DNA from: Chondrosia reniformis
Taxonomy: Eukaryota; Porifera; Demospongiae; Chondrillida; Chondrillidae
Direction of reading: 5' to 3'
Length of the DNA stretch: 64,000 nt
Assembly: GCA_947172415.1 (NCBI GenBank)
Contig: OX359202.1
Coordinates: forward strand, 6,682,899-6,746,898
The notes under the pieces were generated by a model. The model made no database searches. It was given only the letters and a program-made list of their open reading frames with translations, and had not been told where the DNA came from. Of the stretch, positions 59,698 through 64,000 are shown in pieces. How positions within the stretch are numbered: position 1 is the first letter of the stretch; each line of letters opens with the position of its first letter. The position numbers and the translations under genes were made by a program.

Positions 59698-59716
59698 AAT
59701 TCATACGGTGGCAAGG

Positions 59717-60519
59717 GGTCTCTCTAAATCGCGGAACCGGAGCGAATTCCGGAACACGGAAAACGGAGCACGGAATAACGGAAACGCATAATTCGCCGTG
59801 AAGGCAATGTTCGTGATCGTTGTGATCGTTTGAATGACGATCACAAGGCTCTCCTGTCTGCCGTGGGAGTGACAATTGATAGAGTCAACTAGCCATGTAC
59901 ACCAGTTTTCTTTGCAGTCAAGTTTATTAACACTTGCTAGCTCATTGCCGCAACTGTAGGTTTTAACTAAGTTGTCCTTTGTTATGATCTCACCACTTAG
60001 CTATGATTTTAGGGCAAGTTAGCTAATAACAGGAGTGTTACATACCTGCCAGTCCATATTCATACATGTGGCCGACCAATAGTGTGAATACGTTAAGTAT
60101 AATATGTGCACGTACGCTTGGCCTTCACAAATAGCTAGCTACTTGCCTATTAGGGGTACAAGCTCAGCTTGCAGGTGTAATAACGGCGATTTCTACATAC
60201 AGTATACTTAGTTTGTTCGTGTATTTAGTCGAAGAACATCAATGAACCGTTTACGTACGCATTATCAATTGCTAGTTAGCTACCTAGTTCGTTCGTAATT
60301 ATAGTTGTCGCAGTTGCCGCTAATCTCACGCAAGCCTTCCATTCTCTGCTCTCTGTATTCCTGCACGCTGCGTAAATCAGTTGCGCCTGCGTATCGACCG
60401 AACCAATAATTATTATTTAGTTGTTCGGTTTAATTACGGCGAATTATGCGTTTCCGTTATTCCGTGCTCCGTTTTCCGTGTTCCGGAATTCGCTCCGGTT
60501 CCGCGTTTTAGAGAGACCC
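59717..60519. mobile_element. Second inverted-repeat element, about 803 bp, 84-bp arms
   Basis: Arms 59717-59799 and 60436-60519 begin GGGTCTCTCTAAA and are nearly identical over about 84 bp. It starts 10 bp after the target duplication of the element at 58741-59697. No flanking duplication can be recognised and no transposase is encoded, so the superfamily is unknown. Confidence 0.75.
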
Positions 60520-60813: not shown

Positions 60814-61031
60814 GAGAACAATAAAAAATTTCAACAAAAATAGATGTAGGGATGGCACTAAAAACACAGAAACAAGAAAGGGATGTTACACAGTGAAGTA
60901 TTATTCATGCATGAATCCTACAAGCAATATGATTCATGCATAAATAATGCTTCACTGTGTTTCTTGTTTCTGTGCTTTTTGTGCCATCCCTACATCTTCT
61001 ATTATTTTTAAGAAAATTTTTTATTGTTCTC
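60814..61031. mobile_element. Fold-back (palindromic) element
   Basis: A 218-bp imperfect palindrome starting GAGAACAATAAAAAAT and ending with its complement; the central arms include GATGTAGGGATGGCAC and CACAGTGAAG, with a loop near 60930. AT-rich, no coding capacity. Confidence 0.8.
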
Positions 61032-61484: not shown

Positions 61485-61522
61485 TAACCCTAACCCTAAC
61501 CCTAACCCTAACCCTAACCCTA
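61485..61522. repeat. Interstitial telomere-like (CCCTAA)n tract
   Basis: About six perfect TAACCC units on the + strand. Degenerate relatives (CCCTAAACC, TTAGGGTTATAG and similar, both orientations) continue at about 61797-62010. The intervening AT-rich sequence 61530-61790 shows no gene. Confidence 0.9.
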
Positions 61523-62334
61523 GCCATGACCCTTTGAGGAGACTGGTGAAATATTTCATGTAATTATTTAAATATTATTTTAATTAACGAATTAATTAAA
61601 AAATCGCAATATAAAAATATCTTTGAAATTCTTTCTCAAATAATTTCAAAAAAATTGACAAATTTAATTAATTAATTTTACATTTTACTTATTATCTCAA
61701 AAATTAATTAATATAGACATAGGGACATTAGGTTCTCCAGACGTCATTTTTTATGGGCTATCCGATGATACCCATTTTGACCTAAATAACCTATGGGCAC
61801 CACCCTGTAACCCTAAACCTAGCCCCTAAACCCTAGCCCCTAGCCCATAAACCCTAGCCCATAGGTTTTAGGGTTATAGAGTTATTAGAGTTTTATAGGT
61901 TTATTAGGGTAAGAGTAAGGGTTACGGATTGGGTTGGGATAAGGTTGAGGTAGGTTTACCGTAAAGATTAGGGCCAGGGTTAGGGTTATAGGGTTATAGT
62001 GTCAAATCCTAACAAATTATATATCATCGGATAGCTCTCTTCAAGATCAATCTTATAAACTAAAAATAACCTAAAAATTGTAATTAGTTTTTGCGTTAAT
62101 TGAGAAAACTAAATTCATTTTTTAATGTATTTTCCAATACTTAAGCTTTAAATGTCGGTTAATTATAAGTTGTAGCCCCTCCCACAATCTCATCGAACTA
62201 ATCAAAGACCAAGTCCACCAAATAAATCGGATCAATTAGCGTAGAACGGAGGATCCACCCATAATAACTTTTATAGGAAAACCCATGGCCTCCGAAACTA
62301 ATAAAAGTGGGTGTGGCTTAAGTCAAGCCTAATT

Positions 62335-62460
62335 TTAATGGTTAGTTACAGTGTAAGGGTTAGTGACAGCGTTAGGGTTAGTGACAGCGTTAGGGTTAGT
62401 GACAGCGTTACAGGGTGTTGCCCAGACATCACCATATGAGATATGGGTTAGGGTTAGGGG
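62335..62460. repeat. 18-bp TTAGGG-containing repeat
   Basis: Three to four copies of GTTAGTGACAGCGTTAGG, a telomere-like hexamer embedded in a longer unit, followed by GGGTTAGGGTTAGGG. 62011-62335 has no identifiable feature. Confidence 0.85.
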
Positions 62461-62533
62461 GCAATTTTTATCATTTTAAGGAGTCACTGTATAAAGTCGC
62501 ATTTAATAAACAACATTATAAGCTTGAAAATAC

Positions 62534-64000
62534 TTAAAATTTGTAGCGTATGTAATATAAGTTAGCTGTTTTGTCGTATGTGTAGTCAATTGGGAACAGA
62601 ATTTGTCCCAGCTTGACTTTCCTTGTCTGTCCTGCTGTAAACTTGTAGCCATTTTCTCCTAGGTGGTGCCTGAGTGGAGAAAGGATGATGTCTTCACCTT
62701 GAAGTCTGTACACTTTCCCGAAGGATCCATCTGTCTTGATAGCCACAAGTTCTCCAATGGTAGGTTCCAATGTTGTGTTTTCTATGATGTCGTCTGCTGT
62801 AGCAGACCTCTTTGGTGAGCCCTCACAGTTGGAGTCACCTAATAAGCTTGTTTGGAGCATGGTTCTTGAAAATTCATGTGCCTCCTTTTGCTTGTCCATG
62901 CTTGTTCGTCTGTCATACTCTGACAGTTGCTATGTATATGTGATAAGATAAATGTGACTCCGTTCAGCAGGTACTAAAGTAGTCAGCTTACCGTTTTTCT
63001 ATTGTGCTTCATGGACCTTGCTAAAGATGTCTTAAGTTTCTCCGATAAGTCCATCTCCTCTAGATTAGTAACAAAACTTGACCTTATAGTGTTGATCCCC
63101 ACATTTTGACCCGTGAATTGATAAAAAATACCCTTTATATAGGTGGACCAGCTGCCAGAAGTAAAGGGACTTCCACCTGGTCTCTGCATGTAGAAGAACA
63201 TTCAGAAATAAAGATGCAGAAGTGATTGTTGATCAGTTGACTTACCACAAAGAGGGATGAATTCTTTGGATCCGAGCAAAGGTAAGCCTTCCTGTTTAAT
63301 ATATGTTCCTTTAATTGTTGCAAAAGTAGGGGGTGATCATCCAGAGAGACCAGATCATCATTGTAAAACTTCTTTGTTTTGTAATCTGACAGGTAGAGAA
63401 AGGCGTGGTCCCCCTCCAGATCTATATGGAGCATGTTGGCCTTGGTGGCATGCTTTCCCAGCGATGGAAGCTTCTTGTGTACCTGTGTTTGCAGGGAGGA
63501 AGTGACGACAGACCTAGGTGAGTCAGACAGTGATAATTTAATACAATATACGTACTTGTGCCTTTACCATAAAATGTAGGGACTGGTACTCTTTTGACCT
63601 CCTGGGAGGCAGGTCTGTATAGAATAGTAGTGCTAGAAATTTTTGTCCTAGCACAGCCTTCTTTATACCAGAGTCTTCACTAGCATATGCATTTTTGCAT
63701 TGTTTCACCACCTGTAAAATTTCGTCCCTAAGTAGAAAGATTAGTATATAATTTTGTTATGTTATTTACAAACAACAGAGATACACTAATTAGAAACTTA
63801 CCAATCAAGCCACATTCTCCGTGCCTTCAAAGCATCTCTGCTTTGATGAGCTGTAAGGGAACTAGATGCTTTCTTAAAGGATTCTGATTTTTTCTTAAGC
63901 CTTTTGTAGAAGGGTGTGTCATATGAAATGTCTTCTTCTGCTGCTAAGTAGCGTAGAATGTAGCAGAGATGGTCAATGTACGTCCCAATTGTGCTTCCCA
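62534..64000 (-). CDS. Spliced tyrosine recombinase (Crypton-type), 5' end beyond window
   Basis: Minus-strand exons 64000-63802, 63727-63568, 63482-63246, 63183-62992 and 62929-62534 join in one frame. The first exon resembles a SAM-like core-binding domain (IGTYIDHLCYILRYLA). The catalytic domain then shows the expected boxes: arginine box LLFYTDLPPRRSKEYQSL; strands LHIDLEGDHAFLYLSDYKTK; second arginine in GINTIRSSFVTNL; SMKHNRKT (histidine box); and SEYDRRT with the candidate nucleophilic tyrosine. This R-R-H-Y layout is that of tyrosine recombinases of Crypton/DIRS type. A C-terminal extension of about 110 residues ends FPIDYTYDKTANLYYIRYKF. Catalytic residues appear intact. No terminal repeats can be assigned; domestication or an active element are both possible. 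Confidence 0.75.

What the first reader, a model, noticed from the sequence alone, without database searches (positions are those of the whole stretch)
62534..64000. Multi-exon tyrosine recombinase beside telomere-like repeats
Five spliced exons encode a tyrosine recombinase catalytic domain with all expected boxes (PPRRSKE arginine box, TIRSSF second arginine, MKHN histidine, SEYDRRT tyrosine) and an unrecognised C-terminal extension. It lies about 1 kb from an interstitial TTAGGG tract and from a cluster of palindromic elements. Intact boxes across splice junctions argue for an active or domesticated gene, not decay.
Basis: partly seen in the sequence, partly recalled or inferred. Interest (0 to 1): 0.75.

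Follow-up and report, generated by a model that had tools for sequence, protein, structure and literature searches.

The report
Recombinase element capping sponge chromosome ends
The gene is part of a small, probably mobile DNA element found in near-identical copies next to the telomere repeats at chromosome ends of a sponge, where a DNA-cutting-and-joining enzyme may have carried it.

Summary
The gene has seven predicted coding exons, five in the window. It is the proximal half of a bounded element (7.0 kb here, 8.6 kb on C1) with a second gene (808-822 aa where whole). Ten gene-bearing copies were found, all within 20 kb of contig ends, transcribed inward, 97.6-100% alike near the head. [T/C]AGGG abuts the identical inner border in 12 of 12 heads while flanks differ; 8 of 9 tails meet TTAGGG. 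No exact end was found elsewhere. Tyrosine recombinase (YR) identity rests on ordered catalytic motifs kept in 40-51%-identical relics; Pfam, NCBIfam, PHROGs, PDB and fold searches neither confirm nor exclude it. Best reading: a telomere-resident YR element using TTAGGG as attachment site (0.53). Main rival: Y'-like spread by telomere recombination (0.34). Telomere-specific YRs are known in endogenous nimaviruses; a small non-viral one in a sponge would be a new variant.

The parts
62448..62459 (+). TTAGGGTTAGGG abutting the element's inner border (left junction)
   Evidence: sequence; [T/C]AGGG abuts 12 of 12 heads
62460..64000 (.). Proximal part of the element (head GGCAATTTTTATCATTTTAAGG onward); it continues outside the window to window-equivalent 69507 (7,048 bp in all), then (TTAGGG)n to the contig end at 71500
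62534..62929 (-). YR gene exon 7: putative catalytic Tyr (EYDRR) and C-terminal extension, stop
62992..63183 (-). YR gene exon 6: second Arg (NTIRS) and His (MKH)
63246..63482 (-). YR gene exon 5: putative beta-hairpin Lys (DYKTKK)
63556..63727 (-). YR gene exon 4: first Arg box (PPRRSKE)
63802..64000 (-). YR gene exon 3 (part; runs to window-equivalent 64013): putative SAM-like core-binding stretch (by eye); exons 2 (64158-64234) and 1 (64317-65679, with a 15-copy 60-bp repeat coding 20-aa Pro-rich units) lie outside the window
61485..61533 (-). Interstitial (TTAGGG)n on the minus strand in the inner flank, not part of the element

Best explanation
The gene is the recombinase of a two-gene mobile element (8.6 kb at full length) that lives at telomeres. 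Shown: the element has fixed ends meeting TTAGGG-type repeats; gene-bearing copies other than two decayed relics lie only at chromosome ends, in one orientation. Inferred: the product is a tyrosine recombinase; it joins the ends of an excised or replicated circle at a single TTAGGG and recombines that core with a TTAGGG in a short or newly healed telomere, giving [host]-TTAGGG-element-TTAGGG-telomere. Orientation is fixed because the TTAGGG core is asymmetric. Telomere-telomere recombination may then multiply copies and make tandem arrays.
For: Ten gene-bearing copies, all terminal and all inward (40 of 44 matches; the other 4 are two interior relics). Twelve heads exact, 1.4-25.4 kb from a contig end, none elsewhere with up to 3 mismatches. 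Nine exact tails, 1.5-12.8 kb from a contig end (12 further one-mismatch matches lie inside chromosomes, against 15 for the reversed control). The nine other gene copies match C14R only from 12-21 bases before the head, inside the repeat, and not in the flank beyond it apart from repeats and two pieces of 71 and 83 bp; C14L and C14R are 100% identical over 1,988 bp while their flanks share only TTAGGGTTAGGG. C7R and C10R hold a shared spacer before the outer element that is only 88-89% alike over 460-474 bp, whereas each element is 99.4% like C14R: the element is younger there than the spacer. TTAGGG at both ends fits a short direct-repeat core as described for Cryptons (PMC3212892, passages). 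8 of 10 copies keep exons 2-7 free of frame changes; Arg, Lys, Arg, His are kept in the C5 relic and Arg, His, Tyr in the C14 relic. Precedent for telomere-repeat-specific YR insertion: PMC10871703 (passages).
Against: No profile or fold confirmation of YR; no Tyr exon was aligned for the C5 relic. 10 of 12 heads sit only 1-5 repeat units from host sequence, not random in a 2-kb telomere. Attachment-arm inverted repeat 9 of 12, reached by 254 of 2,000 shuffles. No tail-head circle junction among 11 matches in the assembly. No empty site was shown: at C14R and C2R host sequence is cut and not resumed on the far side. Interior relics are not beside TTAGGG arrays within the 6.0 and 5.5 kb fetched. 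Short telomere-capped head fragments (22 bp at C2L; perhaps 6 bp at C14L and 3 bp at C1R) look like abortive copying. No clear purifying selection between copies.
Confidence: 0.53

Rival explanations
1. A Y'-like subtelomeric repeat: broken or eroded ends carrying a few TTAGGG units invade the TTAGGG stub beside an element on another chromosome and copy everything out to the tip. The fixed head border is where the homology stops; the recombinase-like gene is a passenger or relic of an earlier mobile state.
For: Tandem elements at C10R, and at C7R an inner remnant, separated by telomeric tract plus related spacer; short stubs in 10 of 12; telomere-capped short head fragments; host sequence cut and not resumed at C14R and C2R.
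Against: Shared repeat at the joins is only 1-5 units (6-30 bp) in 10 of 12 heads; spacers at C7 and C10 are 88-89% alike, so not recently co-copied with the 99.4%-alike elements, although later conversion of the element could mimic this; gene without frame changes in 8 of 10 copies; relics keep catalytic motifs.
Confidence: 0.34
2. A host gene family domesticated for telomere protection or healing, kept at subtelomeres.
For: Whole copies only at ends; 8 of 10 without frame changes in exons 2-7.
Against: Only 11 of 28 expected chromosome ends carry a head (14 chromosomes from PMC12181767); decayed interior relics; second gene internally deleted in 6 of 10 copies; 2 of 10 YR copies disrupted.
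Confidence: 0.06
3. The protein is not a tyrosine recombinase; the motifs are fortuitous.
For: No library match; fold models weak.
Against: Arg-x-x-Glu, Lys, Arg, His and Tyr in order with His-Tyr spacing of 9; 44 of 20,000 shuffles; motifs kept in relics.
Confidence: 0.13
4. End fragment of a large endogenous virus like the telomere-inserting nimaviruses.
For: Telomere repeats at both ends and a putative YR, as in PMC10871703.
Against: The C1R copy is bounded at both ends with 8,561 bp between; beyond frames overlapping the two genes it has no open frame of 90 aa or more on the minus strand or 110 aa or more on the plus strand (short exons would be missed).
Confidence: 0.03

Closest known systems
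Telomere-associated tyrosine recombinases of endogenous nimaviruses (majaniviruses, pemoniviruses; PMC10871703, passages read)
   Same: YR associated with insertion in the host telomere repeat; telomere repeat on both sides; related multi-exon YR genes in two 28S-inserting relatives
   Different: Those are viruses of hundreds of kb in crustaceans with (TAACC/GGTTA)n; here an 8.6-kb two-gene element in a sponge with TTAGGG. Their protein sequences were not compared here.
Crypton elements (PMC3212892, passages read)
   Same: Small YR-encoding DNA element without terminal inverted repeats; short direct repeat as core in fungal and oomycete ones
   Different: No Pfam match of the protein to any YR family; animal Cryptons were reported without terminal repeats or C-terminal domain; here telomere restriction and a second gene
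Yeast Y' elements (recalled)
   Same: Multicopy, subtelomeric, one orientation, tandem copies separated by telomeric tracts
   Different: Y' encodes a helicase-like protein; here a putative YR and an unnamed second protein
Terminon retroelements of bdelloid telomeres (PMC6431247, passages read)
   Same: Elements attached at chromosome ends, with short telomeric repeats at truncation points, arrays
   Different: Terminons encode reverse transcriptase; none seen here
Starship YR elements of fungi (PMC12506042 and PMC11905480, passages read)
   Same: YR-encoding DNA elements with short direct repeats
   Different: 34-688 kb with cargo and a DUF3435 captain; the passages seen do not describe insertion into telomere repeats
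DIRS-type YR open frames of the same genome (PF00589, 35 matches)
   Same: YR superfamily (if ours is one)
   Different: All interior; no detectable relationship

Membership tests
Tyrosine recombinase superfamily | Catalytic residues in order: Arg, Lys, His/Asn-x-x-Arg, His/Trp, Tyr | tested here: met
   the HxxR His is Asn; residue rules recalled
Tyrosine recombinase superfamily | Significant profile or fold match | tested here: inconclusive
   none found; fold model of half the domain too poor
Crypton | YR DNA element, no terminal inverted repeats, no reverse transcriptase | tested here: met
   (arm repeat not above shuffles); RT absence judged from the open frames of C1R and the empty Pfam scan of the second protein
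Crypton | 4-6 bp terminal direct repeat from integration | tested here: inconclusive
   TTAGGG at both ends, but the host target is itself TTAGGG repeats
Crypton | YR sequence related to Crypton YRs / DUF3504 | tested here: inconclusive
   no Pfam YR match up to E 10; no Crypton sequences compared
DIRS/Ngaro YR retrotransposons | Reverse transcriptase in the element | tested here: not met
   no RT-like open frame in the 8,561-bp C1R element, read by eye, with an empty Pfam scan of the second protein
Endogenous nimavirus | Genome of hundreds of kb with viral core genes | tested here: not met
   bounded at 8.6 kb
Endogenous nimavirus | Flanked by the host telomere repeat, with an associated YR | tested here: met
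   for the repeats; YR as above
Y'-like subtelomeric repeat | Multicopy at chromosome ends, tandem copies with telomeric tracts between | tested here: met
Y'-like subtelomeric repeat | Helicase-type open frame | tested here: not met
   neither protein matches a Pfam helicase

The most novel reading that the evidence does not exclude
A small, non-viral, intron-bearing DNA element in an early-branching animal whose tyrosine recombinase uses the host telomere repeat TTAGGG as its integration core, so that it inserts into short or newly healed telomeres and becomes part of the chromosome cap, carrying a second (possibly SET-like) protein.
Probability: 0.47. Interest if true: 0.75.

Novelty: new variant of a known kind. 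Interest (0 to 1): 0.62.

Why it matters
Telomere-targeted mobile elements that I know of are mostly retroelements; a compact recombinase element that uses the widespread TTAGGG repeat would be a simple, testable system for how selfish DNA colonises chromosome ends and how ends are healed. Near-identical copies with exact borders at 11 of 28 expected ends, plus public RNA-seq, HiFi reads and an alternate haplotype for the same specimen (PMC12181767), make the question directly answerable.

Tried and rejected

Attachment-site arms: best inverted 12-mer 9 matches, reached by 254 of 2,000 shuffles. Circle or head-tail junction in the assembly: none among 11 matches. Selection: over 10 copies 13 replacement and 9 silent sites in exons, 3 variable of 415 intron columns; in the 8 copies without frame changes 2 and 3: too few to decide. 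SET-like motifs of the second protein (GAGLGCF, GRFVNQGG, KELTIHYG) are named from memory; they recur in part in relics, but Pfam and PDB searches found no SET match.

Mended on the second reading: I had called the C7 and C10 spacers one co-copied block. Measured, they are 88-89% alike over 460-474 bp, less than the elements; this weakens the Y'-like rival, so I moved the best reading from 0.50 to 0.53, the rival from 0.37 to 0.34 and the novel case from 0.45 to 0.47.

Literature: seven searches on YR with telomere, subtelomere, Crypton, TTAGGG or sponge terms and one on telomere-repeat DNA transposons showed no telomere-targeted YR element outside nimaviruses in the titles and abstract starts listed. 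I read passages of six papers only, and the library lacks most subscription journals, so absence from print is not shown.

Full report
What was checked. The window is G000:C14:6682899-6746898 of a 117,379,552-base genome in 15 contigs. The eight contig lengths seen (C1 10.41, C2 10.29, C3 9.42, C5 8.80, C7 8.46, C10 7.66, C11 7.63, C14 6.75 Mb) equal those printed for Chondrosia reniformis odChoReni1, 14 chromosomes and a mitochondrion (PMC12181767, passages), so the host is very probably that sponge. The window stops 7,500 bases before the end of C14, which closes in (TTAGGG)n from window-equivalent 69508 to 71500.

Gene. On the minus strand seven predicted coding exons join into an 882-aa reading frame. 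AG/GT is kept at the borders of exons 2-7 in the ten copies, except that the exon-4 donor falls in an alignment gap in 8 of them. Exon 1, outside the window, codes a 20-aa Pro-rich unit in a 15-copy 60-bp repeat. The rest has a putative core-binding stretch (exon 3), PPRRSKE (exon 4), DYKTKK (exon 5), NTIRS and MKH (exon 6), EYDRR and a C-terminal extension (exon 7). His to Tyr is 9 residues, the usual spacing (recalled). In C1R intron 4 is 4 bases shorter and in frame, so exons 4 and 5 read through; the C5 relic has stops between them, so I keep it as an intron.

Copies. A protein search of the genome gave 44 matches at E 1e-5 or better: 40 in ten copies, all within 20 kb of contig ends and all transcribed inward (C1R, C2R, C3L, C5L, C7R, C10R twice, C11R, C14L, C14R), and 4 in two decayed interior relics (C14:2306 kb, C5:4096 kb) (the tool calls its counts lower bounds). 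8 of 10 copies have exons 2-7 without frame changes; C2R and C3L carry frame-changing indels under this model. Over about 2 kb from the head the nine other copies match C14R at 97.6-100%.

Borders. The nine other copies begin to match C14R 12-21 bases before the head, inside the TTAGGG-type repeat. The 25-base head occurs 12 times without mismatch and nowhere else with up to 3, always 1.4-25.4 kb from a contig end: the ten gene copies, a 22-bp head at C2L capped directly by telomere, and a head at C11L that matches for 101 bp, repeat included, before unrelated sequence. [T/C]AGGG abuts 12 of 12; 10 of 12 have 1-5 such units, C7R and the outer C10R copy sit in 44- and 23-unit TTAGGG/TCAGGG arrays. 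At C14R and C2R subtelomeric sequence known from other ends is cut and followed by repeat plus element. Nine exact tails (TTCAGGATTAATTAG) exist, all 1.5-12.8 kb from a contig end; 8 have at least one TTAGGG next, at C1R one unit then GGCGGG before more repeats; the ninth (C2L) meets a spacer. One search also gave two partial matches near C2 ends. No tail was found at C2R, C5L or C14L: C5L runs into an expanded 353-bp satellite, C2R into other subtelomeric repeats, C14L reads N there.

Second gene. Distal to the YR gene, same strand, an open frame of 808-822 aa is whole at C1R, C2R, C5L and C7R and internally deleted in the other six gene copies; C7R also holds pieces of it in an inner remnant. 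Relics lie inside C1, C2 (two places) and C5. No library names it; SET-like motifs are my reading from memory.

Enzyme class. Motif order, and its survival in relics at 40% and 51% identity over the aligned parts, support a YR; no database or fold search does (listed under Tried and rejected). The genome's Pfam-recognised YR matches (35, not a full count) are all interior; of twelve loci read, ten showed a DIRS-like YR frame as the longest frame.

Mechanism. Both ends meet the telomere repeat, as expected if a circle bearing one TTAGGG recombined with a telomeric TTAGGG. But a broken end with a few TTAGGG units copying from an element's TTAGGG stub would give the same borders, and tandem copies, telomere-capped head fragments and short stubs fit that well. 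In favour of a site-specific step: 6-30 bp of shared repeat in 10 of 12 cases, the C14L/C14R pair (100% over 1,988 bp, flanks sharing 12 bp), and spacers at C7R and C10R that are 88-89% alike while the elements after them are each 99.4% like C14R. I put 0.53 on YR-driven insertion and 0.34 on recombination alone.

Known and new. Telomere-repeat-specific insertion with a distinct YR family is documented for endogenous nimaviruses (PMC10871703, passages). What would be new is a compact, non-viral, two-gene version in a sponge.

Noticed in passing
window 59716-59799 and 60436-60519: 84-nt, 99% complementary inverted arms 636 nt apart: probably a MITE or fold-back element.
   Followed up: no
window 60814-61031: Nested palindromic element of about 220 bp, likely another MITE.
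   Followed up: no
L073 (C5:8500-13500) and L009:6405-7269: A 353-bp tandem satellite inside the element, 2.5 copies at C14R, much expanded at C5L.
   Followed up: partly
L050 (C2 left end): A 22-bp head of the element capped directly by telomere repeats, with remains of another element's tail further in.
   Followed up: yes
C5:4092397-4096521 (L054, L074): Relic with YR upstream of the second gene, the reverse of the terminal copies: circular permutation, or two relics side by side.
   Followed up: partly
L017 (C14 left end) flank: Inverted TTAGGG-GGCAAT-TAGGG fragment fused head to head with the element's repeat stub.
   Followed up: no
genome-wide, e.g. L059, L060, L066: DIRS-type YR open frames; 35 Pfam PF00589 matches listed, none terminal.
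   Followed up: partly
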